Shown here: positions 20,981 through 32,663 of the stretch, one piece after another | Layout: the number at the start of each line of letters is the position of its first letter | How positions within the stretch are numbered: position 1 is the stretch's first letter | The notes under the pieces: model-generated | What the model was told of the DNA's origin: nothing | The model's input: the letters and a program-made list of their open reading frames with translations, nothing else | Databases searched by the model: none | Translations under genes and position numbers: made by a program | NCBI RefSeq assembly: GCF_000769405.2 | Contig: NZ_CP053440.1 | Coordinates: 907,706 to 971,705, forward strand | DNA: 64,000 bases | Reading direction: 5' to 3' | Source: Rhizobium brockwellii | GTDB lineage: Bacteria; Pseudomonadota; Alphaproteobacteria; Rhizobiales; Rhizobiaceae

Positions 20981-21087
20981 CGGTTGGGGTCGTTTGTGGA
21001 ACCCGGCGACATCATCAGTCGCCACGACGATCGGCATGAACTCTCGAGCGCTGGCCGGCGGACATCGACCGCCACGTGAGAGAACGT

Positions 21088-21105
21088 GATGAAATATATT
21101 TCATC
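21088..21105. promoter_or_regulatory. perfect 18-bp palindrome, probable SorC operator
   Basis: GATGAAATATATTTCATC reads the same on both strands. It ends 12 bp before the -35 box of the nine-gene catabolic operon, which includes its own SorC-type regulator. AT-rich palindromes upstream of the promoter are typical targets of SorC regulators. The assignment to that regulator is inferred from position. Confidence 0.7.
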
Positions 21106-21117
21106 ATATGAATTATA

Positions 21118-21251: not shown

Positions 21252-22280
21252 TTGCGCAAATTTCTAAGCACGACCGCATTGGCGGTCCTTGCATCGACGC
21301 TTTTCGCCGGCGCGGCCAGCGCGGACACGGAAAATCCGTTCCGCTGCAAGCCCGGTGAAAAATACGTCATGAACGTCATGGTATCGGGCGTCGAATATTG
21401 GTTCCCGGTCTATGAAATGTTCAAGCAGGCCGGTCAGCAGCTCGGTTGCGAGACTGCCTATACCGGCACGCCGGAATATGACGTCAACAAGCAGATCGCC
21501 ACTTTCGACCAGGCGTTGGCCCAGAATCCGGCCGGTATTCTCGTTCACCCGATGAACTCCGATCCGTTCATCGAGCCGATCAACCGGGCGATCGACCAGG
21601 GCACGGCGGTCGTGACCTTCGCAGCCGATGCGCCGCTTTCCAAGCGCATCTCGTTCGTCACCTCGGACAATACCCGCGAAGGCACCTATGCGGCCGACGC
21701 GATTGCCGAAAAGATGGGTGGCAAGGGTGAATATGCCGTTCTCGAAAATCCGGGCCAGGACAACCACGACAAGCGTATCGCCGCCTTCATCGCCCGTATG
21801 GAGGAAAAATATCCGGATATGAAGCTCGTCGGCCGCGCTGCATCCAATCAGGACCCGAACAAAGCCTATCAGGGCTTGATGAGCTTGGTGCAGGCACATC
21901 CGAACATTGGCGCCGTCTTCATGCCGGAAGCGAATTCGGCGATCGGCGCTTCGCAGGCCAACAAGGAAAGCGGCGGCAAGATCCTCGTGATGTGCGCCGA
22001 CGTCAACGCCAACATTCTCGACATGATCAAGGCGGGCGAAGTGTTCGGCTCGATCAACCCGAACCAGGGCATGCAGGGTTACATGGGCTTCATGCTCCTG
22101 TGGCTTGCCAAGCATCCCGAACTCATCGACCCGATGAACGACGCCAAGCGCGTCGGCTTCAATCCGATGAGCATTCCGTTCGTCGACAACGGCCTTTCGA
22201 TCGTCACGGCTGATAATGCCGACGACTTCTACTGGGACAAGTATCTGAAGCGGCGGGGCACCAAAGGCATCGAGGAGTAA
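21252..22280 (+). CDS. sugar ABC transporter, periplasmic binding protein
   Basis: A 342-residue protein started at TTG 21252: GAGGAGGAAAC ends at the right spacing, and the product then opens with a proper signal peptide (MRKFLSTTALAVLAS, cleavage at ASA near 24). The in-frame ATG at 21108 is upstream of the promoter. The mature part is an RbsB/type I sugar-binding fold: MVSGVEYWFPVYEMFKQAG, QNPAGILVHPM, TRIGTYAADAIA-like VTSDNTREGTYAADAIAEK, and IGAVFMPEANSAIG. Ligand is a sugar or polyol that I cannot name. First gene of the nine-gene operon. Confidence 0.92.
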   Translation: MRKFLSTTALAVLASTLFAGAASADTENPFRCKPGEKYVMNVMVSGVEYWFPVYEMFKQAGQQLGCETAYTGTPEYDVNKQIATFDQALAQNPAGILVHPMNSDPFIEPINRAIDQGTAVVTFAADAPLSKRISFVTSDNTREGTYAADAIAEKMGGKGEYAVLENPGQDNHDKRIAAFIARMEEKYPDMKLVGRAASNQDPNKAYQGLMSLVQAHPNIGAVFMPEANSAIGASQANKESGGKILVMCADVNANILDMIKAGEVFGSINPNQGMQGYMGFMLLWLAKHPELIDPMNDAKRVGFNPMSIPFVDNGLSIVTADNADDFYWDKYLKRRGTKGIEE

Positions 22281-22291
22281 GCCTTTGTGCC

Positions 22292-22323
22292 GGCTGTCCG
22301 GGGGCAGGAAACTCCGGACAGCC
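22292..22323 (+). terminator. stem-loop after the sugar binding-protein gene
   Basis: A perfect 10-bp inverted repeat, GGCTGTCCGG 22292-22301 and its complement 22314-22323, loop 12 nt, no following T-run. Its place between binding-protein and ATPase genes suggests differential expression, as at 8920-8946. Confidence 0.55.
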
Positions 22324-22346
22324 ACCGCGAGCGTGAGGAGGAGACG

Positions 22347-23888
22347 ATGATGGCGTCGGTGCCGGTTCTGGAAATCCGCAATGTCAGCAAGCACTTTGGT
22401 GCAGTGAAGGCGTTGACGGAGGTGAGCTTCAGCCTGGAGAAAGGCGAGGTTCATGCGCTTTGCGGCGAAAACGGCGCGGGCAAGTCGACGTTGATGAACA
22501 TCATTGCCGGCGTGCTGCAGCCGACCGAGGGGGACATTCTCGTCGATGGCGCGCCGGTAAAGGTGACGTCGCCGGCCGTGGCGCAATCGCTCGGGCTTGG
22601 CCTGGTGCATCAGGAAATCGCGCTCTGCCCCGATGCGACGGTGGCCGAGAATATGTTCATGGCCGCTACCAACCGTCGCCGCTCGCCTTTCATGAACTAT
22701 GGCAGGCTGGAGCGGGACGCGCAGGTCGCGATGAACCGTCTGGCGCCGATCGATGTGCGCCGCAAAGTCGGCGACTTGTCGATTTCCAGCCAGCAGCTCG
22801 TCGAGATCGCCAAGGCGCTGACGCTCGATTGTCGGGTGTTGATCTTCGACGAACCGACAGCGGCTTTGACGGAATCGGAGACGCAGGTCCTGTTCGGAAT
22901 CATCCGCGACCTCAAGGCGCAGGGTATTTCAATCATCTATATCAGCCACCGCATGGCCGAAATCTTCAGCCTGTGTGACCGGGTCACCGTGTTTCGCGAT
23001 GGCCGTTATGTCTCGACGGAGAAGGTGGCGGATTTGACGCCGGATGATGTGGTGCGCCGCATGGTCGGGCGCGAGATCACTCAGCTCTATCCGGAAAAGC
23101 AGGCGCTGGCGGAGCGGACCGATGAAATCATCCTGAGCGTCCGCGATCTCGGCGACGGCAGCCGCTTCACGAATGTGAGCTTCGAACTGCGCAAGGGTGA
23201 AATTCTCGGCGTCGGCGGGCTGATCGGCTCGGGCCGCACCGAGATAGCCGAAGGTATTTGCGGATTGCGGCCGGTAACCGCCGGCGAGGTGCAGCTGCAT
23301 GGACAGCGGCTTCGGACGCGCTCTTATGCGCAGGCCGCGCAAGCGGGCGTCGTCTACCTGTCGGAAGACCGAAAAGGCTCCGGCATTTTCCTCGACCTTT
23401 CCATCGCCCAGAACATTGCCGTTCTCGATTTGAAATCGCTGACCGGACCGCTGGGACTGTTGAATTCCAAGGCCGAGGCGGATCGCGCCCACAACCTGGT
23501 CCGGCGGCTCGGCGTGCGGATGGGTGGCATCGACATGCCGGTTTCGTCGCTGTCGGGCGGAAACCAGCAGAAGGTGGCGATCGCAAAGCAGTTGGCGGTC
23601 GATCCCGAGGTCATCCTGATGGACGAGCCGACCCGCGGCATCGATGTCGGCGCCAAATCGGAAATCCACCGGCTGCTGCGCGATCTCGCGCGCTCCGGCA
23701 TCGGCATCGTCGTCATCTCATCGGAACTGCCTGAGCTTCTCGGCCTGTGCGACCGGGTGCTGGTCATCCACGAAGGCACGGTCGCAGGCGAGGTCGAGGG
23801 CGAGACGATGACGGAAGAAGCGATCATGCGGCTCGCCTCGGGTATCGGCGGTCACAACAATTCAAAGGCATCAGAGCATGCCGCATGA
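22347..23888 (+). CDS. sugar ABC transporter, double ATPase subunit
   Basis: A 513-residue protein; ATG 22347 follows GAGGAGGAGACG. It has two fused ATPase halves as in RbsA/MglA: half 1 with Walker [10 protein letters not shown], signature [16 protein letters not shown] and Walker [11 protein letters not shown]; half 2 with a degenerate Walker [10 protein letters not shown], signature [16 protein letters not shown] and Walker [12 protein letters not shown]. The altered second Walker A is normal for this family. It energises import together with the permease at 23917. Confidence 0.94.
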
Positions 23889-23916
23889 AGAAAACGTAGG
23901 GGCAGGAGACAACGTC

Positions 23917-24909
23917 ATGGCGGACGCTACATTGGTAACGGCACATCAGGCACGCGCGCCCGGCTGGAAACGGCTGGGGACGATACGCGAGGCGGGACTA
24001 ATCGCGATCATCTTGGTGCTCTGCATCGTCATGAGTTTTGCCTCGCCGCATTTTCTGACGCTCGGCAACTTCCGGGCGATGCTGATGTCGTTCTCGGTGG
24101 AAGGGATCGTCGTCGTCGGCATGACCATCCTGTTGATCGTCGGCGGCATCGACCTGTCGGTCGGCTCGGTCGTCTGCTTCTCGATGGTGCTGTCGGGCTC
24201 GCTGTTCCTGATGGGGCTCGATCCGTGGAGCGCATCTCTGATCGGCATTCTTGCCAGCGGCCTGATCGGCTGTGTCATGGGCTTCTTCGTCACGGTCGTC
24301 GGGCTCAACCACTTCATCACCTCGCTTGCTGCCATGGTCATCGTGCGTGGTATCTGCCTGATCATCACCAAGGGAACGCCGCTGTCGCTGTTCACCTTGC
24401 CGCCCTCGTTCAAGGCGGTCGGGCAGGGCACATTCTACGGCGTCCCCTATGTGATCCTGATTTTTGTTGCGGTCGTCGTGCTGTTCGATTTCCTGCTGCG
24501 CCGGGCGACCGCCTTCCGCAAGGTGTTCTACACCGGCAGCAACGAGAAGGCGGCGCTCTATTCCGGGATCAAGACCAACCAGGTGAAGTTCTGGGTGACG
24601 GTGCTCTGCGCCACGCTGTCCGGCGTTGCCGGGGTGATCTACATGTCCCGCTTCGGTGCCGCGACCCCGACCTTTGGCGTCGGCATGGAGCTCAATATCA
24701 TCGCCGCCGCGGTGATCGGCGGTGCGTCGCTGAATGGCGGTTCCGGCACGATCCTGGGCGCAATCCTCGGCATTGCCCTTCTGTCGGTCGTAACAAGCTC
24801 GTTGATCTTGCTCGACGTGTCTGTCTATTGGCAAGACATGATCAAAGGCTGCATTCTGCTTGCTGCCGTCTCGATCGACCATTTCCTGCACAAGCGGAAG
24901 GCTGCCTGA
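23917..24909 (+). CDS. sugar ABC transporter, permease (RbsC type)
   Basis: A 330-residue protein. ATG 23917 follows GCAGGAGAC; an ATG at 23878 overlaps the ATPase gene and is less supported. About eight to ten helices, with the RbsC-type stretches VVVGMTILLIVGGIDLSVGSVVC and AAAVIGGASLNGGSGTILGA. Only one permease gene is present, so it likely works as a homodimer. A single base separates its TGA from the ATG of the regulator gene, so the genes are translationally coupled. Confidence 0.93.
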   Translation: MADATLVTAHQARAPGWKRLGTIREAGLIAIILVLCIVMSFASPHFLTLGNFRAMLMSFSVEGIVVVGMTILLIVGGIDLSVGSVVCFSMVLSGSLFLMGLDPWSASLIGILASGLIGCVMGFFVTVVGLNHFITSLAAMVIVRGICLIITKGTPLSLFTLPPSFKAVGQGTFYGVPYVILIFVAVVVLFDFLLRRATAFRKVFYTGSNEKAALYSGIKTNQVKFWVTVLCATLSGVAGVIYMSRFGAATPTFGVGMELNIIAAAVIGGASLNGGSGTILGAILGIALLSVVTSSLILLDVSVYWQDMIKGCILLAAVSIDHFLHKRKAA

Positions 24910-24910
24910 T

Positions 24911-25915
24911 ATGCCGATAGCCAAACTCAAACCCGCGAACGCGCCGCGCGAGGAAATTGTGATCGCCCGGCAGATGCACCAGGCCCTGGTCCTGCATTTC
25001 CTCGAGGGACTGACACAGGCGCAGATTGCCGATCAGCTCGGCATCTCGCACGCCACCGTCAACCGGCTGATCAAGCGCGGCCGCCAGCTCGGTCTGGTCG
25101 AGATCAAGATCAAGTCGCCGGTCGAGCCGCTGGTCGACATGGAAGAACAGCTCCGAGCGCTTGGCGGCATCGGCCGCGCCGTGGTGGTGCCGACAGTGTC
25201 CGACAATCCGCAGACGGCGCTTCAAGCCGTCGGCGAGGCGGCAGCAAGGTTGCTGCTGGAAGAGATCACCGACGGCGATACGATCTGCATCACCGGCGGC
25301 AAAGGCGTGAGCGCCGTCGTCGCCGGTCTGCAGCCGCCGCGTCGGTTCAATGTCGAGGTCATTCCGGCAACCGGCTGCGTGCAAGGTAAACACTATACCG
25401 ACGTCAATCATGTCTCGACCTTGATGGCCGACCGGCTTGGGGGGCGTTCCTACCAGATCCATGCGCCGCTCTTTGCCGACGATGCCGAGCAGCGGGCGAT
25501 GCTGATCAACATGCGTTCCGTCGCAGACGTTTTCAAACGGGCGCGCGAGGCGAAGGTGGCGGTGGTCGGCATCGGCTCGATCCTGTCGGACGATTCGAGC
25601 TATTACGACCTGCATCCGTCCTCGAGCACCGACCGCGCCGCGATCGAGCGGTCCGGCGCGTCCTGCGAATTGCTGGCGCATCTGCTCGATGATCATGGCC
25701 AGGTCTGCGACTACAGCCTTAACCGTTCGCTGGTGTCGTTGACGCTGCCGGAATTCGCCTCGATCCCCACCAAGATCGGTGTGGCGAGCGGGCCGAACAA
25801 GGCGGGCCCGATCCTCAGCGTTCTGCGCGGCAATCATCTCGATACGCTGGTGACCGATGAGGCGACGGGTGCGCGGGTGCTGGCACTGGCGAATGGCGAA
25901 GGAAAATGGGCATGA
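24911..25915 (+). CDS. SorC-family sugar-responsive regulator
   Basis: A 334-residue protein with an N-terminal helix-turn-helix (LTQAQIADQLGISHATVNRLIKRG, about residues 34-57) and a C-terminal SorC/DeoR-type sugar-phosphate-binding domain: DTICITGGKGVSAVVAGL, VVGIGSIL and ASGPNKAGPILSVLRGNHLDTLVTDEATG. Such regulators usually bind a phosphorylated product of the pathway. Encoded inside the operon after the transporter, it probably controls the palindrome at 21088-21105. Its TGA overlaps the next ATG (ATGA). Confidence 0.92.
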   Translation: MPIAKLKPANAPREEIVIARQMHQALVLHFLEGLTQAQIADQLGISHATVNRLIKRGRQLGLVEIKIKSPVEPLVDMEEQLRALGGIGRAVVVPTVSDNPQTALQAVGEAAARLLLEEITDGDTICITGGKGVSAVVAGLQPPRRFNVEVIPATGCVQGKHYTDVNHVSTLMADRLGGRSYQIHAPLFADDAEQRAMLINMRSVADVFKRAREAKVAVVGIGSILSDDSSYYDLHPSSSTDRAAIERSGASCELLAHLLDDHGQVCDYSLNRSLVSLTLPEFASIPTKIGVASGPNKAGPILSVLRGNHLDTLVTDEATGARVLALANGEGKWA

Positions 25916-26907
25916 GCGGACAGCAATTGACACGTGAGATCGGCAAGTCCGGCGTTTCCGCCTCGGCGGTCGGACTGGGCACCTGGGCGATCGGTGGGTG
26001 GATGTGGGGCGGGACCGATGAGGCAGAATCCATCGCCGCGATCCAGGCATCGCTCGATGCCGGCGTGACGCTGATCGACACGGCGCCGGCCTATGGGCTT
26101 GGACGTTCCGAGGAGATCGTCGGCAAGGCACTGGCCGGGCGCCGCGACAAGGCTGTCATCGCCACCAAATGCGGCCTTGTCTGGCATACGCAGAAGGGTC
26201 GTCATTTCTTCGACCAGGACGGCAAGCCGGTCCACCGTTATCTCGGCCGCGATGCGATCCTGCATGAGGTCGAGGAAAGCCTGAGGCGGCTTGGAACCGA
26301 CTATATCGACCTCTATATCACCCATTGGCAGGATCCGACGACCCCGGTCGAGGAGACGATGCGGGCGCTGGAAGACCTGCGCGCATCGGGCAAGATCCGG
26401 GCGATCGGCGCAAGCAATGTCAGCCCCGACGACCTCAATGCCTATATCGCTGCCGGTGGTCTCGATGCGATCCAGGAGCGGTTCAGCATGATCGACCGGG
26501 AAATCGAGGCGGAACTTCTGCCGCTGACCAAGGCCAACAGCATTGCGACGCTGAGCTACTCGTCGCTGGCGCTGGGGTTGCTGTCCGGCACCATCGGTCC
26601 GGACCGGGTGTTCTCAGGCGACGACCAGCGCAAAGGCAATCCGCGCTTTTCGGTCGACAACCGCCAGAAGGCAACGGCGCTGGCCGACGCCATCCGGCCG
26701 GTCGCCGAAAAACACGGCGCCAGCATCGCCCAGATCGTGATTGCCTGGACGCTGGCGCAGCCGGGCATCACCTTTGCACTTTGCGGCGCGCGCAATCCGG
26801 CACAAGCGCTCGACAATGCGCGGGCCGGGACCATCCGGCTGGATGCGGCCGATCTTGCGGCCATCGATAAGGCCATAGCGGCGAAACTGACTGACATGGA
26901 CAGGTAG
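25912..26907 (+). CDS. aldo/keto reductase
   Basis: A 331-residue protein; ATG 25912 overlaps the upstream stop as ATGA, with AAGGA ahead. The aldo/keto reductase catalytic tetrad is complete: Asp56 (LIDTAP), Tyr61 (AYGLG), Lys86 (ATKCG) and His138 (ITHWQDP). The C-terminal NADPH-contact part includes LSYSSLALGLLSG and FALCGARNPAQALDNA. The family interconverts aldehydes or ketones and alcohols with NAD(P)H. Here it likely oxidises or reduces a sugar/polyol intermediate; direction is unknown. Confidence 0.93.
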   Translation: MSGQQLTREIGKSGVSASAVGLGTWAIGGWMWGGTDEAESIAAIQASLDAGVTLIDTAPAYGLGRSEEIVGKALAGRRDKAVIATKCGLVWHTQKGRHFFDQDGKPVHRYLGRDAILHEVEESLRRLGTDYIDLYITHWQDPTTPVEETMRALEDLRASGKIRAIGASNVSPDDLNAYIAAGGLDAIQERFSMIDREIEAELLPLTKANSIATLSYSSLALGLLSGTIGPDRVFSGDDQRKGNPRFSVDNRQKATALADAIRPVAEKHGASIAQIVIAWTLAQPGITFALCGARNPAQALDNARAGTIRLDAADLAAIDKAIAAKLTDMDR

Positions 26908-26919
26908 CGGATCGCCATC

Positions 26920-28668
26920 ATGAAACGGCAAGAGATATTGGACGGGCTCCGCCAGAGGCCGAAGGTGGACGTGTGTGTCATCGGCGGCGGCATCAACGGC
27001 ATCAGCGTCTTTCGGGAGCTGTCGCTACAGGGGCTGAATGTGCTGCTCGTCGAGAAACACGACTATTGCTCCGGGGCCAGTTCGGCGCTGTCGCGCATGG
27101 TCCATGGCGGGCTTCGCTATCTTGAAAACGGCGAATTCAAGCTGGTACAGGAATCGCTGGTCGAGCGGGATCGGCTGCTGCGCAACGCGCCGCATTACGT
27201 CGCGCCGCTGCCGACGACGGTACCGGTGTTCGATATATTTTCCGGCCTCGGTAATGGCATCATCCGCTTCCTCGGCCTCAGCCGCCGCCCAAGCCGGCGT
27301 GGCGCTATCGCCATCAAGGCGGGCCTGAGTATCTATGATTTCCTGACGCGCAAGCGGGCATTGATGCCGCGCCACCAGTTTCGCGGCCGGCGCAGAACGC
27401 TTGCCAAGTGGCCGGCGCTCAATCCCGACATCAAGAGTTCGGCCACCTATTTCGACGCCTGGGTCAGCCATCCGGAGCGGCTCGGCTTCGAGCTTCTGCA
27501 GGACGGTCTTTCAGCAAAGTTCGGAGCGATGGCGCTGAACTATGCGGAACTGCGGCGGACAGAGGATGGTCAGTACCGTGTCGAAGACCAGATCGGCGGC
27601 GCATCGGTTGCCGTCGAACCGGCGCTGATCATCAACGCCACCGGCGGCTGGATAGACATCGCCAATCAGAGCCTGTTTTCGCCAGAAGCACGGCCGGCAC
27701 CGCTGATGGGCGGCACCAAGGGCTCGCATCTGATCGTCGACAATGCGGAGCTGCGCGACGCGCTCGCCGATCACATGATCTACTATGAGAACGAGGACGG
27801 GCGGATCTGCATCCTGTTTCCCTATCTCGGCAAGGTTCTCGTCGGTTCCACCGATATCCGCGTCGACGATCCTGAAACGGTGCGCTGCGAGGCCGGCGAG
27901 CGGGATTATATCCTGCAATCGCTCGCCTTCGTGCTGCCTGATATCACCGTCCGGCCGGAACAGATCGTTTTCCAGTTTTCCGGCGTGCGGCCGCTGCCGG
28001 CCAGCACCGACAGTTTTACTGGCCGCATTCCGCGCGATCATTTCTGCACGGTCGTCGAGCCCAAAGATGGCGGCCCGCCGGTTCTGTGCATGATCGGCGG
28101 CAAGTGGACGACATTCCGATCCTTCGGGGAACTGGCGGCCGACATGGCTCTGGAAAGGCTGGGCAGGCGGCGCCGCGTTGCGACAACCGATCTGCCGATC
28201 GGCGGAGGGCGGGCATTTCCCGCCAGCGTGGCCGTCTGGCTAACGCAGATGGCGGCCAGCAAAGGCCTTTCCATCAGGCGCATGGCTGAGCTGTTTGCCC
28301 GATATGGCACGGATGCCGAGGCGGTTGGCGATTTCATCGCGGCCGGCCCCGATGCAGTGCTGCCGCACGCCGGCTACTCGGTGCGCGAATTGCAGTTCCT
28401 GATCCGCGGTGAAGCGGTGGAACATCTCGACGACCTGCTTTTGCGGCGCACGACGCTGGCCGTTTCGGGCGAGCTTTCGCTCGGCATGATGGATGCCGTA
28501 CTCGACCTGCTGGCGCAAGAAAAGCGCTGGACGCTCGCGCATCGCACCCGTGAGCGCGACCGTTTTCTCACCCTTCTCATCGAACGCCACGGCGTCGACG
28601 AAGACATGCTTTCCGCAAGGAACGAACCAAGGAGCATAGAATGCGACACAACAGCAAAGTCCGGATGA
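26920..28668 (+). CDS. GlpD-like FAD-dependent dehydrogenase
   Basis: A 582-residue protein, long for the family, with the GlpD opening: VCVIGGGINGISVFREL, VEKHDYCSGASSALSRMVHGGLRYLE. The C-terminal part has the NADH-independent glycerol-3-phosphate dehydrogenase features GRIPRDHFCTV, GGKWTTFRSFGELAADMAL and PIGGG. It could oxidise a polyol phosphate such as erythritol phosphate or glycerol 3-phosphate, passing electrons to quinone. The erythritol-4-phosphate dehydrogenase EryB belongs to the same family. It starts 12 bp after the reductase gene and overlaps the aldolase gene by 28 bp. Confidence 0.9.
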   Translation: MKRQEILDGLRQRPKVDVCVIGGGINGISVFRELSLQGLNVLLVEKHDYCSGASSALSRMVHGGLRYLENGEFKLVQESLVERDRLLRNAPHYVAPLPTTVPVFDIFSGLGNGIIRFLGLSRRPSRRGAIAIKAGLSIYDFLTRKRALMPRHQFRGRRRTLAKWPALNPDIKSSATYFDAWVSHPERLGFELLQDGLSAKFGAMALNYAELRRTEDGQYRVEDQIGGASVAVEPALIINATGGWIDIANQSLFSPEARPAPLMGGTKGSHLIVDNAELRDALADHMIYYENEDGRICILFPYLGKVLVGSTDIRVDDPETVRCEAGERDYILQSLAFVLPDITVRPEQIVFQFSGVRPLPASTDSFTGRIPRDHFCTVVEPKDGGPPVLCMIGGKWTTFRSFGELAADMALERLGRRRRVATTDLPIGGGRAFPASVAVWLTQMAASKGLSIRRMAELFARYGTDAEAVGDFIAAGPDAVLPHAGYSVRELQFLIRGEAVEHLDDLLLRRTTLAVSGELSLGMMDAVLDLLAQEKRWTLAHRTRERDRFLTLLIERHGVDEDMLSARNEPRSIECDTTAKSG

Positions 28669-29483
28669 ACCGGCTGTTCGGCGGCGGCCGCTGCCTCGAC
28701 GTGGCGATCGATCACGGCGTCTGCAACGAACCGTCCTTCCTCAACGGGCTGGAGGATATTCATGCCGTCGTCAAGGCGCTGGTTTCTGCCGGACCGGATG
28801 CGATCCAGATGAATTACGGCCAAGCAGACCTGCTGCAGGACGTGTCCGGCAAGGACAAGCCGGCGCTGGTCATGCGCATCGACATGGGTAATCCCTATAA
28901 CCGGATCCGCCACCGCGACATGTGGGCGGTGCTGCAGAACGAGGCCGAGCCGTTGATCGGCGCGATCGAAATGGATGCGGCCTGCGTCGTCGTCAACCTG
29001 TTCATGCTGCCGGACGAGCCGGACCTGTTCCGCCAATGCGTGCAGAACATTTCCCGGGTGCGGGCCGATTGCGACAAGTATGGCATGCCGCTGATGATCG
29101 AGCCGCTGGTGATGCAGCCGGTCACCGAAAAGGGCGGCTACATGGTCGACGGCGACGCGGACAAGATCGTTACGTTGACGCGGCTCGCCCGTGAGATGGG
29201 GGCGGATATCGTCAAGGCGGATCCGACCACCAATGCCGAGGATTTCCATAGAGTGGTGGAAGCAGCCCGTTGCCCGGTTCTGGTGCGCGGCGGCGGGAAG
29301 GAAGATCTTCGTGCCGTCTTCGACAAATCCGCCGCCTTGATGCGACAGGGCGCGATGGGCATGGTTTATGGGCGCAACATCTATCAGCACGCCAATCCGA
29401 GTGCCGTGGTGCGCGGGCTGATGGCGATCGTGCACCAGGATGCGAGCGGCGAACAGGCCATTGCACTCTATCAGCAGGGTTGA
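28641..29483 (+). CDS. DhnA/LsrF-type class I aldolase
   Basis: A 280-residue protein; ATG 28641 follows AAGGAGCATAGA and lies inside the GlpD-like gene end. Motifs of DeoC/DhnA-family aldolases: CLDVAIDHG with Asp24, MRIDMGNP, MIEPLVMQP, and the Schiff-base lysine Lys192 in ADIVKADPTT, followed by VLVRGGGKED and GMVYGRNIYQH at the phosphate site. It should cleave a phosphorylated ketose to dihydroxyacetone phosphate or glyceraldehyde-type products. LsrF, which processes phosphorylated AI-2, is a relative, but the other genes differ. Confidence 0.9.
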   Translation: MRHNSKVRMNRLFGGGRCLDVAIDHGVCNEPSFLNGLEDIHAVVKALVSAGPDAIQMNYGQADLLQDVSGKDKPALVMRIDMGNPYNRIRHRDMWAVLQNEAEPLIGAIEMDAACVVVNLFMLPDEPDLFRQCVQNISRVRADCDKYGMPLMIEPLVMQPVTEKGGYMVDGDADKIVTLTRLAREMGADIVKADPTTNAEDFHRVVEAARCPVLVRGGGKEDLRAVFDKSAALMRQGAMGMVYGRNIYQHANPSAVVRGLMAIVHQDASGEQAIALYQQG

Positions 29484-29514
29484 GCAGCGATCTCGAACCT
29501 TGGGAGGGTTCTGC

Positions 29515-31041
29515 ATGGGAAACTATCTTTTAGGGCTCGACGCCGGAAACACCGTTATCAAGGCGGTGATTTTCGACCGGGCGGGCAACGAGATCGCAGC
29601 TGCGTCCGAAGAAGGACACAGCCGCATGCCGAGCCCGGGGCATGTCGAGCGAGGGTTGGACGAACTCTGGACGAATGCTCGGCAGGTCATCCGCGCTTGC
29701 ATCGAAAAGGCAGAGATCCAGCCGGAGGAAATTGCCGCGATCGGTTGCGCCGGGCATGGCAACGGTCTCTATGCGCTTGATCGCGACGGCCTTCCGCTGA
29801 TCGGCATCCAGTCGCTCGACACACGGGCTGCCGGGCTGGTCGATGAATGGCGAGAAGCCGGTGTTGGTGACCGGACCTATCCGATTGCCCGCCAACGCCC
29901 GTGGCCATCCCAGACGCCGACATTGCTTGCCTGGCTGAAGCGTCACCGGCCGGAACTGTTCAATCGCATCGGTACAGTGTTCTTCTCCAAGGATTTCGTC
30001 GTCAACCGTCTGACTGGCCGCCGCGTCAGCGAAGTATCCGATATGTCGGGGGCCGGTCTGCTGGATCTTGCCGCGCGCCGCTACGACAAGGCGCTGATGG
30101 AGGCCTATGGGCTGGGCAATTGCATGGACCTGTTGCCGCCGCTCATCGAAAGCGCCGACATTGCCGGGACCGTGACGGAAGAGGTGGCGACGCAAACCGG
30201 GCTTGCCGCCGGGACGCCTGTGGTCGGTGGGCTGTTCGACGTTGTCGCCTCGGCGCTCGGCTCGGGCGTTTCGCGCACCGGCAGCGCCTCGATCATTGCC
30301 GGCACCTGGAGCATCAACCAGGTCGTTATAGACGGTCCCGACCTCGACGGGCCGGTCTTCATGTCCTCGACTTTCGATCGCACCCGTTACATGGCGATGG
30401 AAAACAGCGCCACCTCGGCTGCCAATCTCGAATGGCTGGTGCGGGAGTTCTTCGAAGGCGAGCATGCGGAAGGCGTTTCGCCCTTCGATGCCTGCTGCGC
30501 GCTGGCCGGGGCGATCGAGCCCGCGGCAGACGATCCGCTCTACCATCCGTATCTTTACGGCGCCCAGCAGGACGGCCACGCCCGCGCCGGCTTCTACGGC
30601 ATTGCCGGCTGGCACAGCAAGGGGCATCTCGTTCGTGCGCTTCTTGAAGGTGTCGCCTTCGGTCATCGCCAGCACATCGAGACGATCCGAAAGGCGGGCG
30701 CGGTCTTCAACGAGGCGGTGCTCTCCGGCGGCGGCTCACGCAGCCTGATCTGGCCGCAGATCTTTGCCGATGTGCTCGGCGTTCCGGTCAGCGTTGCCCG
30801 TTCGCGCGAAACCGGTGCACTGGGGGCGGCGATTGCGGCTGGAACCGGCGTCGGCATTTTCGCGAACTTCGGCGCTGGTGCTGCGGCCATGGTCCGCACC
30901 GAGCGGCATTATCGTCCGGATGTCTCGCTTGAGGCGCATTATGCGCGACGTTACGCTCTCTATCAGGATATCGCCGAAGCGATGGCACCGCTCTGGCGGC
31001 GTCTGACGGCGGTCCCGCCGGCAGCAGCGGGGGCGGAGTGA
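29515..31041 (+). CDS. FGGY-family carbohydrate kinase (LyxK/EryA-like)
   Basis: A 508-residue protein; ATG 29515 follows GGGAGGG. Both FGGY halves are seen: LGLDAGNTVIKAVIFDRAGNE, IGCAGHGNGLY, GGLFDVVASALGSGVSRTG and the ATP site end VLSGGGSRSLIWPQIFADVLGVPV. By eye it is closest to LyxK (L-xylulose or 3-keto-L-gulonate kinase) and EryA, from which the substrate cannot be chosen. It phosphorylates a sugar or polyol, supplying the aldolase. Its TGA overlaps a GTG two codons ahead of the ATG of the next gene. Confidence 0.92.
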   Translation: MGNYLLGLDAGNTVIKAVIFDRAGNEIAAASEEGHSRMPSPGHVERGLDELWTNARQVIRACIEKAEIQPEEIAAIGCAGHGNGLYALDRDGLPLIGIQSLDTRAAGLVDEWREAGVGDRTYPIARQRPWPSQTPTLLAWLKRHRPELFNRIGTVFFSKDFVVNRLTGRRVSEVSDMSGAGLLDLAARRYDKALMEAYGLGNCMDLLPPLIESADIAGTVTEEVATQTGLAAGTPVVGGLFDVVASALGSGVSRTGSASIIAGTWSINQVVIDGPDLDGPVFMSSTFDRTRYMAMENSATSAANLEWLVREFFEGEHAEGVSPFDACCALAGAIEPAADDPLYHPYLYGAQQDGHARAGFYGIAGWHSKGHLVRALLEGVAFGHRQHIETIRKAGAVFNEAVLSGGGSRSLIWPQIFADVLGVPVSVARSRETGALGAAIAAGTGVGIFANFGAGAAAMVRTERHYRPDVSLEAHYARRYALYQDIAEAMAPLWRRLTAVPPAAAGAE

Positions 31042-31043
31042 AC

Positions 31044-32663
31044 ATGCGTGTGAACGATGCGGCCATTGATGCGGGAAGCTACGACTATATCATCGTCGGC
31101 GCGGGCTCGGCGGGATGCGTTCTGGCCAACCGGCTGTCGGCCGATCCGAAAACCCGCGTCCTGCTGCTCGAAGCCGGCGGCAGCGACCGCTATCATTGGG
31201 TGCATGTGCCGATCGGCTATCTCTACTGCATGGGCAATCCACGCACCGACTGGATGATGAGGACGGCCGCGGAAGCCGGACTGAACGGCCGGTCACTGCC
31301 CTATCCGCGTGGAAAAGTGCTGGGCGGCTGCTCGTCGATCAACGGCATGATCTACATGCGCGGTCAGGCGGCCGATTACAACGGCTGGCGGCAGGCGGGC
31401 AATTCCGGCTGGGGTTGGGACGACGTGCTGCCCTATTTCCTGAAATCCGAGGACAACCATCGCGGCAAGTCGCGGATGCATGGAGCGGGCGGCGAATGGC
31501 GGGTGGAGAAGCAGCGGCTGTCCTGGCCGATCCTCGATGCCTTTCGCGATGCGGCGGAAGAACTCGGCATCCGCAAGACCGACGATTTCAACGATGGCGA
31601 CAATGAAGGCTCGGGCTATTTCGAGGTCAACCAGCGCGGTGGCCTGCGTTGGAACACGACCAAGGCCTTTCTGCGCCCGGCGATGAAGCGGCCCAATCTG
31701 CGTGTGCTGACCGGCGCCGAAACCGAGCGGCTGGAATTCGACGGCAGAATGGTGACTGGCGTGCGGTTCCGGCTGAACGGGCGGAGTCATCTCGCTCGCG
31801 CCGGTCGCGAGGTCATCCTGTCTGCCGGTGCGATCAATTCACCGAAAATCCTGGAGCTTTCCGGGGTCGGTCGACCGGATGTGCTGTCCGCTGCCGGACT
31901 GGATGTCGTCCATGAACTTCCGGGTGTCGGCGAAAACCTGCAGGACCATCTGCAAATCCGTACGGTCTTCCGCATCGAGGGCGCAAAGACGCTGAACCAG
32001 CTCTATCACAACCTTTTCACCCGGGCGGGCATGGGGCTTGAATATATGCTGCGCCGGTCCGGGCCATTGTCGATGGCGCCGAGCCAGCTCGGTATCTTTG
32101 CCAAGAGCGATCCGGCCGTTGCAACCGCCGATCTCGAATATCATGTGCAGCCCTTGAGCACCGACCGGCTCGGCGAACCGCTGCACAAATATCCCGCCGT
32201 CACCGTCTCCGTCTGCAATCTGCGGCCGGAAAGCCGGGGGACCGTGCATGTTGGCGGCCGGGACTTTTCCGTGGCGCCGGAAATCCGCCCGAATTATCTT
32301 TCGACCGTCGGCGACCGGATGGTTGCGACGAAATCGATCCGGCACGCCCGCCGGCTCATGGAGGCCGGTGCGATCGCCAAGTACCGGCCTCAGGAGATGC
32401 TCCCGGGCACGGAATACCAGAGTGACGAGGAGCTGATCCGCCGCGTCGGCGATATCGCCACGACGATCTTCCATCCGGTCGGCACCTGCAAGATGGGCAG
32501 AGACACGATGGCGGTTGTCGATCCGCAATTGCGGGTGCATGGGCTGGCGAAACTGCGGGTGGTCGATGCCTCGATCATGCCGACGATCGTGTCGGGCAAC
32601 ACCAACTCGCCGGTGATCATGATTGCCGAGAAGGCCGCGAAAAGCATTCTATCAGGGGCGTGA
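31044..32663 (+). CDS. GMC-family FAD oxidoreductase
   Basis: A 539-residue protein, ATG 31044 with GGAG six bases ahead; a GTG at 31038 is possible. Glucose-methanol-choline family marks: YIIVGAGSAGCVLANRLS, RGKVLGGCSSINGMIYMRGQAADYNGW, VILSAGAINSPKILELSGVG and the C-terminal FHPVGTCKMG with the active-site histidine, then IVSGNTNSPVIMIAEKAA. Relatives are choline or polyol/alcohol dehydrogenases. Last gene of the operon; it could perform an initial oxidation of the substrate. No signal peptide is seen, so it is cytoplasmic. Confidence 0.92.
   Translation: MRVNDAAIDAGSYDYIIVGAGSAGCVLANRLSADPKTRVLLLEAGGSDRYHWVHVPIGYLYCMGNPRTDWMMRTAAEAGLNGRSLPYPRGKVLGGCSSINGMIYMRGQAADYNGWRQAGNSGWGWDDVLPYFLKSEDNHRGKSRMHGAGGEWRVEKQRLSWPILDAFRDAAEELGIRKTDDFNDGDNEGSGYFEVNQRGGLRWNTTKAFLRPAMKRPNLRVLTGAETERLEFDGRMVTGVRFRLNGRSHLARAGREVILSAGAINSPKILELSGVGRPDVLSAAGLDVVHELPGVGENLQDHLQIRTVFRIEGAKTLNQLYHNLFTRAGMGLEYMLRRSGPLSMAPSQLGIFAKSDPAVATADLEYHVQPLSTDRLGEPLHKYPAVTVSVCNLRPESRGTVHVGGRDFSVAPEIRPNYLSTVGDRMVATKSIRHARRLMEAGAIAKYRPQEMLPGTEYQSDEELIRRVGDIATTIFHPVGTCKMGRDTMAVVDPQLRVHGLAKLRVVDASIMPTIVSGNTNSPVIMIAEKAAKSILSGA

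What the first reader, a model, noticed from the sequence alone, without database searches (positions are those of the whole stretch)
21252..32663. Nine-gene sugar/polyol operon with an unusual enzyme set
Seen: tightly coupled genes for a sugar ABC importer, SorC regulator, aldo/keto reductase, GlpD-like dehydrogenase, DhnA-type aldolase, LyxK/EryA-like kinase and GMC oxidoreductase. Known: ery operons use EryA kinase and GlpD-like EryB with isomerases, and lsr uses an FGGY kinase with LsrF aldolase. Neither includes the GMC and aldo/keto enzymes together. Inference: a catabolic route for a sugar or polyol in which oxidation, phosphorylation and aldol cleavage are joined. The substrate is unknown, making this the best candidate for an undescribed pathway here.
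Basis: partly seen in the sequence, partly recalled or inferred. Interest (0 to 1): 0.75.

Follow-up and report, generated by a model that had tools for sequence, protein, structure and literature searches.

The report
Rhizobial polyol operon, kinase–dehydrogenase–aldolase
A set of genes found in many rhizobia and relatives that probably takes up a sugar alcohol, adds phosphate, oxidises it and splits it into pieces for central metabolism; which sugar alcohol it uses is still unknown.

Summary
The nine-gene operon is real, on a plasmid of a Rhizobium leguminosarum-type genome. In 80 of 80 related loci the eight genes before GMC keep their order where sequence is held. The two enzymes that made it look odd are the least fixed: GMC is full length in 60 of 79 evaluable loci and changed state at least 11 times on a tree; the aldo/keto reductase is missing from the operon in three genomes of one genus. 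The recurring core is a CUT2 importer, SorC regulator, FGGY kinase, GlpD-like flavoenzyme and DhnA class I aldolase. The kinase groups with LyxK, not EryA; the dehydrogenase forms a clade apart from GlpD and EryB. All 16 such dehydrogenases found in 398 genomes lie within one gene of an FGGY kinase, with different third enzymes, so the pair looks like a reusable front end. Proposed route: polyol, polyol phosphate, ketose-1-phosphate, then DHAP plus aldehyde. A conserved palindrome, unique in the genome at up to one mismatch, is the probable SorC operator. No solved kinase or aldolase is close, and ten open-access full-text searches found no description. The substrate is unknown; a pentitol or hexitol is favoured.

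The parts
21090..21103 (.). 14-bp palindrome TGAAATATATTTCA (inside a 20-bp perfect palindrome 21087-21106), probable operator of the operon's SorC regulator
   Evidence: one match at up to 2 mismatches in the window, 0.03 expected; one place in the 7.1-Mb genome at up to 1 mismatch; of 93 loci evaluated, 78 within 2 and 91 within 3 mismatches, 61 of the 78 starting 160-164 nt before the SBP start; the two misses are L153 (no SorC in the stretch held) and L055 (has SorC)
21252..22280 (+). CUT2-type sugar/polyol-binding protein (TTG start, same length as the 3841 annotation; an upstream ATG at 21108 is possible)
   Evidence: Peripla_BP_4; below the cut-off of each of the 7 NCBIfam models listed; best solved relative 6sw4, 165 bits
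22347..23888 (+). CUT2 ABC importer ATPase
   Evidence: two ABC_tran stretches
23917..24909 (+). CUT2 ABC importer permease
   Evidence: BPD_transp_2
24911..25915 (+). SorC/DeoR-type sugar-binding transcriptional regulator
   Evidence: PF04198 Sugar-bind 191.9 bits plus HTH matches
25906..26907 (+). aldo/keto reductase, accessory
   Evidence: PF00248; YdjG model 292 bits, cut-off 550; missing from the operon in three genomes of one genus, whose best relatives elsewhere are 41-42% identical
26920..28668 (+). GlpD-like FAD dehydrogenase, proposed polyol-phosphate dehydrogenase
   Evidence: DAO + DAO_C; clade apart from GlpD/EryB 100/100; residues at E. coli GlpD R317 and R332 kept in the 11 sequences printed (their role as phosphate ligands is recalled)
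28641..29483 (+). DhnA / DeoC-LacD class I aldolase, proposed ketose-1-phosphate aldolase
   Evidence: PF01791 211 bits; Lys192 in the column of the LsrF lysine that reads Ala in entry 4p2v
29515..31041 (+). FGGY kinase of the LyxK-type clade, proposed polyol kinase
   Evidence: FGGY_N and FGGY_C; LyxK 34%, EryA 29%; clade support 98/94 and 96/90; Asp242 in a column that is Asp in every row printed
31038..32663 (+). GMC oxidoreductase, accessory
   Evidence: GMC_oxred_N/C; full in 60 of 79 evaluable loci; at least 11 changes of state on the tree, 8 forced by starred branches

Best explanation
The operon encodes uptake and a phosphorylate-oxidise-cleave route for a sugar alcohol. A CUT2 ABC importer brings in the polyol. 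A LyxK-type FGGY kinase phosphorylates one end. A GlpD-like FAD enzyme oxidises the neighbouring hydroxyl, probably passing electrons to the respiratory chain, and gives a ketose-1-phosphate. The DhnA class I aldolase splits this through a Schiff base on Lys192 into DHAP and a short aldehyde. AKR and, where present, GMC are accessory redox enzymes that handle the aldehyde or admit a related substrate. The SorC protein controls the operon from the palindrome at 21090-21103 and senses the polyol or a phosphorylated intermediate. Shown here: gene order, conservation, families, clades, recurrent linkage and the conserved palindrome. Inferred: reaction order and direction, site of phosphorylation, electron acceptor, and the match of regulator to operator. 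Unknown: the substrate. A C5 or C6 alditol is favoured because cleaving a C4 compound would release formaldehyde (recalled chemistry).
For: Core enzymes recur without AKR or GMC: kinase, GlpD-like enzyme and aldolase are together in 7 of 7 non-own genomes with the aldolase at E<=1e-70 (of 289 searched), against AKR in 4 of 7 and GMC after the kinase in 1 of 7. The 16 GlpD-like places found in 14 of 398 phylum genomes all lie next to an FGGY kinase or one gene away from it. Kinase and GlpD distances correlate over 23 linked pairs, one of them EryA/EryB (Spearman 0.79, 0 of 2000 permutations as high). Another lineage, G572, has kinase, GlpD-like gene and a DhnA aldolase in tandem, that aldolase being only 33% identical to the own-genome aldolase paralogue. 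In G636 importer, AKR and aldolase are kept beside a divergent kinase and GlpD-like gene. The own-genome aldolase paralogue (52%) is clustered with a D-lyxose-type isomerase and PfkB kinases, which fits a ketose-1-phosphate substrate. The GlpD arginines are kept.
Against: No biochemistry. LyxK acts on a ketose, so the kinase may phosphorylate a ketose and not a polyol. EryA and LyxK are long branches, so the exclusion of EryA is less sure than its support value says. GMC relatives at 60-70% exist outside the operon in 7 of 9 genomes examined, so absence from the operon is not absence from the cell. The L153 kinase is only 29.5% identical and a long branch. The distance correlation is partly shared ancestry. 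In G572 the triad lies near an EryG-like binding protein (76%), which points to tetritols and against a C5/C6 substrate there. Kinase-GlpD pairs also occur with no aldolase labelled nearby, so the pair alone does not imply cleavage. Structure models of SBP and kinase were too poor to use (mean pLDDT 47.0 and 42.9).
Confidence: 0.6

Rival explanations
1. Ketose-first route: GMC or AKR interconverts the imported sugar or polyol to a ketose, the kinase makes the ketose-1-phosphate, the aldolase cleaves it, and the GlpD-like enzyme oxidises glycerol-3-phosphate or another side product.
For: LyxK, the nearest characterised kinase compared, is annotated as an L-xylulose kinase (34%); GMC and AKR are in the operon here; in G287 a 70% GMC relative lies with an SDR and an IlvD/EDD-family dehydratase, which suggests that such GMC enzymes act in sugar oxidation.
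Against: GMC and AKR are the least conserved members, while the GlpD-like gene stays with a kinase and lies outside the GlpD/EryB clade.
Confidence: 0.2
2. Tetritol operon: a threitol or erythritol stereoisomer is degraded by a scheme akin to ery, the aldolase acting on a C4 compound or in a side role.
For: The sister kinase-GlpD pairs (K2-G2) lie beside ery-type importer, EryA, EryD, TpiB or RpiB genes. In G572 the kinase-GlpD-DhnA aldolase triad lies near an EryG-like binding protein (76%) and its kinase and GlpD group with the K2-G2 type.
Against: The window operon has its own importer, and no EryC, TpiB or RpiB type gene is among its nine genes. Its kinases form a separate clade (100/99); its GlpD-like proteins do too but with less support (90/86). 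Aldol cleavage of a tetrulose-1-phosphate would give formaldehyde (recalled chemistry).
Confidence: 0.15
3. AI-2 or AI-2-like phospho-signal processing (lsr-like).
For: DhnA-family lyase, FGGY kinase and CUT2 importer; LsrK is the best solved kinase relative.
Against: LsrB, LsrK and LsrF models score far below their cut-offs (54.6/384, 241/528, 104.9/297); no LsrG-type gene among the nine; LsrF only 29% identical; the E. coli lsr operon as annotated has no GlpD-like gene.
Confidence: 0.03

Closest known systems
ery locus (eryABCD, eryEFG, tpiB, rpiB) of Rhizobium and Brucella
   Same: FGGY kinase followed by a GlpD-family flavoenzyme, ABC importer, SorC-type regulator
   Different: own-genome EryA 29.0% and EryB 29.6% identical and in other clades; isomerase-type genes instead of an aldolase. 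The names Ery, TpiB and RpiB on the own genes are my reading of gene order against PMC3599248; the record names only families.
E. coli LyxK (L-xylulose kinase, yia-sgb operon)
   Same: nearest characterised kinase of those compared, 34% over 96%
   Different: no GlpD-like or DhnA aldolase gene in that operon, and a Na+ symporter-type importer as annotated
lsr operon (LsrK, LsrF, LsrACDB)
   Same: CUT2 importer, FGGY kinase, DhnA-family lyase, SorC-type regulator LsrR
   Different: low identity, no GlpD-like gene, no LsrG-type gene among the nine
sulfo-EMP pathway, E. coli YihS-YihV-YihT
   Same: logic (recalled): a ketose-1-phosphate is cleaved by a class I aldolase
   Different: isomerase and another kinase type; YihT gave no BLASTP match with the window aldolase at E 1e-3
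glycerol GlpK-GlpD
   Same: kinase, then flavin dehydrogenase to DHAP
   Different: GlpK 25% and GlpD 30% identical; a C3 polyol needs no aldolase

Membership tests
ery (erythritol) operon | EryA/EryB orthologs | tested here: not met
   29.0% and 29.6% identity to own-genome EryA and EryB; other clades, with the caution that EryA is a long branch
ery (erythritol) operon | EryC, TpiB or RpiB type genes with the kinase-dehydrogenase pair | tested here: not met
   none among the nine genes; present in the ery-type locus at 101-108 kb of NZ_CP050098
lsr (AI-2) operon | LsrK, LsrF and LsrB at model cut-off | tested here: not met
   241/528, 104.9/297 and 54.6/384 bits
DhnA / DeoC-LacD class I aldolase | domain and Schiff-base lysine | tested here: met
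   PF01791 211 bits; Lys192 aligned with the LsrF lysine
FGGY kinase, LyxK-type clade | FGGY_N + FGGY_C, conserved Asp, grouping with LyxK | tested here: met
   within the clade LyxK's place is unresolved and its branch is long
L-xylulose kinase (LyxK function) | activity on L-xylulose | not testable with these tools
   34% identity only
GlpD (glycerol-3-phosphate dehydrogenase) | equivalog score cut-off | tested here: not met
   254.5 bits, cut-off 360 (PRK12266), and 222.8, cut-off 352 (PRK13369)
CUT2 sugar ABC importer | SBP of Peripla_BP_4 type, double ATPase, BPD_transp_2 permease | tested here: met

The most novel reading that the evidence does not exclude
The LyxK-type kinase and its partner GlpD-like flavoenzyme are a previously unrecognised front end for polyol breakdown that evolution has joined to at least three back ends: a DhnA aldolase (this operon and G572), ery-type isomerases (TpiB and RpiB in G326), and a TPP-dependent lyase-like enzyme (G643, Phyllobacterium). 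The window operon is the aldolase version: a phosphorylate-oxidise-cleave pathway for an alditol, here under its own private operator.
Probability: 0.5. Interest if true: 0.65.

Novelty: new variant of a known kind. Interest (0 to 1): 0.5.

Why it matters
If right, it gives a testable role to an operon kept in many Rhizobiaceae and relatives but annotated only generically (aldolase, glycerol-3-phosphate dehydrogenase, carbohydrate kinase), suggests that a clade of GlpD-like proteins is misannotated, and supplies a rule for reading related operons: a LyxK-type kinase beside such a GlpD-like gene suggests polyol phosphate oxidation, and the third enzyme tells the fate of the chain. Plant polyols are carbon sources around roots, so the substrate may bear on competition there.

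Tried and rejected
Class II aldolase gene as the partner of the K2-G2 pair: dropped, because it is convergent with G2, while K2-G2 follow a DUF2291 + ABC importer + DeoR run on the same strand. EryA as nearest kin of the kinase: not supported by the trees. AlphaFold models of SBP and kinase from 13 and 10 close sequences were poor (pLDDT 47.0, 42.9), so no fold search was run. Reading the substrate from the SBP's solved relatives: the best hits are distant and disagree. The sigma-70 and terminator scans gave no more than shuffles (3 found against 3.3 expected; 4 against 10.7). Rfam and tRNA scans of the window were empty. Literature: ten searches were answered; searches used locus tags that I guessed from memory. 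Passages were seen in PMC12542648, PMC3454389, PMC4961836 and PMC3599248; in PMC12239276 and PMC12337268 the terms sought were not found, so only their listings were seen. The S. meliloti tag SMb20504 (a sugar-binding protein in a table of PMC12542648) may be this SBP, but I could not confirm that, and nothing rests on it.
Full report
What is there. Nine genes on one strand at 21252-32663 encode a CUT2 importer, a SorC-type regulator, an aldo/keto reductase, a GlpD-like flavoenzyme, a DhnA-type class I aldolase, an FGGY kinase and a GMC oxidoreductase. The window lies in contig C2 of a 7.1-Mb genome in 7 contigs. A 13-kb stretch of that contig is 100.0% identical to plasmid pRL9b4 of R. leguminosarum bv. 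trifolii 9B. The same operon is annotated on pRL9b4 and on pRL12 of strain 3841.

Conservation. The eight genes SBP to kinase are in the same order in 80 of 80 as far as held; SBP and ATPase are full in 79 of 79 evaluable; GMC is full in 60, partial in 2 and absent in 17 of 79 evaluable. On a kinase + GlpD tree the presence of GMC needs at least 11 changes, 8 of them forced by starred branches; L028 was left out as not evaluable, the two partial copies were counted as absent and the window as present. Crude dN/dS is 0.009-0.149 over the nine genes against three relatives. Presence is patchy: of the 17 genomes of the family listed in a 398-genome sample, 7 have the aldolase at E<=1e-60.

Core set. 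Of 289 genomes drawn from the class, 8 have the aldolase at E<=1e-70, one being the own genome. Of the other seven, all have kinase and GlpD-like gene next to it, six have importer and SorC, four have AKR, and one has GMC after the kinase; a second carries a 44% GMC nearby on the other strand. The three without AKR are of one genus, and their best AKR elsewhere is 41-42% identical, against 71% and 65% in two genomes that have AKR in the operon. GMC is different: relatives of 60-70% lie outside the operon in 7 of 9 genomes examined. In G287 this GMC has an SDR and an IlvD/EDD-family dehydratase next to it (nearest equivalog L-arabinonate dehydratase, 862.5 bits, cut-off 882), and G194 looks alike by eye. 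So GMC seems to be an enzyme that moves in and out of the operon, not its defining step. Its best solved relative is deposited as a chloramphenicol-inactivating oxidoreductase (359 bits), which says little about its role here.

Kinase and dehydrogenase. The kinase is 34% identical to E. coli LyxK, 31% to LsrK, 29% to the genome's EryA and 27.5% to XylB. Trees put it with LyxK and several GlpD-linked kinases, with EryA outside (98/94; 96/90); EryA and LyxK are long branches, so this is not beyond doubt. The GlpD-like protein scores below the GlpD cut-offs and belongs to a clade that excludes E. coli GlpD, the genome's GlpD and EryB (100/100). In 398 genomes of the phylum, 14 have such a protein at E<=1e-65, in 16 places; in 16 of 16 an FGGY kinase lies next to it or one gene (aldolase or DeoR) away. 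Distances of the two proteins correlate over 23 linked pairs (Spearman 0.79; 0.88 without L153). Shared ancestry contributes to this, and one of the 23 is the EryA/EryB pair.

Back ends. Eight of the 16 places are this operon type with the aldolase. Five are a K2-G2 type; in each of these an ery-type importer, EryA, or TpiB/RpiB lies nearby, and in G326 the order is importer, EryD, kinase, dehydrogenase, TpiB, RpiB. PMC3599248 (passages) describes a hypothetical gene at the start of the R. leguminosarum eryEFG transcript; I take the DUF2291 gene to be that gene, and the Ery names on the own genes are likewise my reading. One place (G643) has a TPP enzyme and a CUT1 importer, as in Phyllobacterium zundukense. 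One (G572) has kinase, dehydrogenase and a distant DhnA aldolase in tandem, near an EryG-like binding protein of 76%. One (G636) keeps this operon's importer, AKR and aldolase next to a divergent kinase and dehydrogenase.

Aldolase. Lys192 falls in the column of the LsrF lysine that reads Ala in entry 4p2v. The nearest solved relatives are MJ0400 (80 bits) and LsrF (57 bits), so no substrate can be copied. The 52% paralogue on contig C1 is clustered with a D-lyxose-type isomerase, PfkB kinases and a GatZ-like protein, which fits cleavage of a ketose-1-phosphate.

Regulation. A 20-bp perfect palindrome at 21087-21106 holds the core TGAAATATATTTCA. The core occurs once in the window (0.03 expected at up to 2 mismatches) and at one place in the genome (up to 1 mismatch). 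It starts 162 nt before the SBP start. Of 93 loci evaluated, many of them close relatives, 78 have it within 2 mismatches and 91 within 3; 61 of the 78 start 160-164 nt before the SBP; shuffles reach 2 mismatches in 0.05% of trials. Of the two misses, L153 has no SorC gene in the stretch held, but L055 does have one, which counts against a strict rule. A SorC operator is the simplest reading.

Mechanism. The recurrent triad fits kinase, then flavin dehydrogenase, then aldolase: polyol to polyol phosphate to ketose-1-phosphate to DHAP and an aldehyde. Arginines at E. coli GlpD positions 317 and 332, recalled as phosphate ligands, are kept in all 11 sequences printed, E. coli GlpD included. I put 0.6 on this order of steps. 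The substrate is open. A pentitol would give glycolaldehyde and a hexitol glyceraldehyde; a tetritol would give formaldehyde, which I think less likely, although the G572 context points to tetritols.

Known or new. Ten full-text searches of the open-access library found no paper on this operon, two of them with guessed locus tags; most subscription papers are not in the library and supplements were not searched. By the tests in the table it is neither ery nor lsr. Kinase followed by flavin dehydrogenase is known from glycerol and erythritol; following it with a DhnA aldolase is not a combination that I know. I class it as a new variant of a known kind.

Noticed in passing
NZ_CP050098 91559-100234 (L119; own genome C2 about 92-101 kb): A second LyxK-type kinase + GlpD-like pair follows a DeoR gene and a DUF2291 + ABC importer run beside the ery-type locus; I know of no assigned role for it.
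   Followed up: partly
L155 (G643) and L123 (Phyllobacterium zundukense): Kinase + GlpD-like pair with a GntR regulator, CUT1 importer and acetolactate-synthase-like TPP enzyme: possibly another polyol route ending in a TPP-dependent cleavage.
   Followed up: partly
own genome C1 about 256.9-265.5 kb (L110) and Thioclava L088:11998-15675: Paralogous DhnA aldolase (52%) clustered with a D-lyxose/D-mannose-type isomerase and a PfkB-type kinase; in L110 also a second PfkB kinase, a GatZ-like protein and an SDR. Probably a separate sugar operon.
   Followed up: partly
L153 (G636): This operon's importer, AKR and aldolase next to a divergent kinase, a G2-like dehydrogenase and a GntR; no SorC in the stretch, and the operator palindrome is missing too.
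   Followed up: partly
L084:18571-22231 (R. johnstonii 3841 pRL12): A methyltransferase and an AAA ATPase gene lie downstream of the operon in 3841 where strain 9B has none.
   Followed up: no
L086:9199-10200 and L087:14778-15850: S. meliloti ml46 has no AKR listed between SorC and GlpD (best single match covers 72%), and Alloyangia pacifica has GMC annotated as two pieces: possible decay of the accessory genes. The plasmid gene tables are incomplete.
   Followed up: no
L113 and L116 (G194, G287): An SDR gene lies directly before the operon in this genus; G194 has no importer or SorC of this type in the 19-kb stretch fetched.
   Followed up: no
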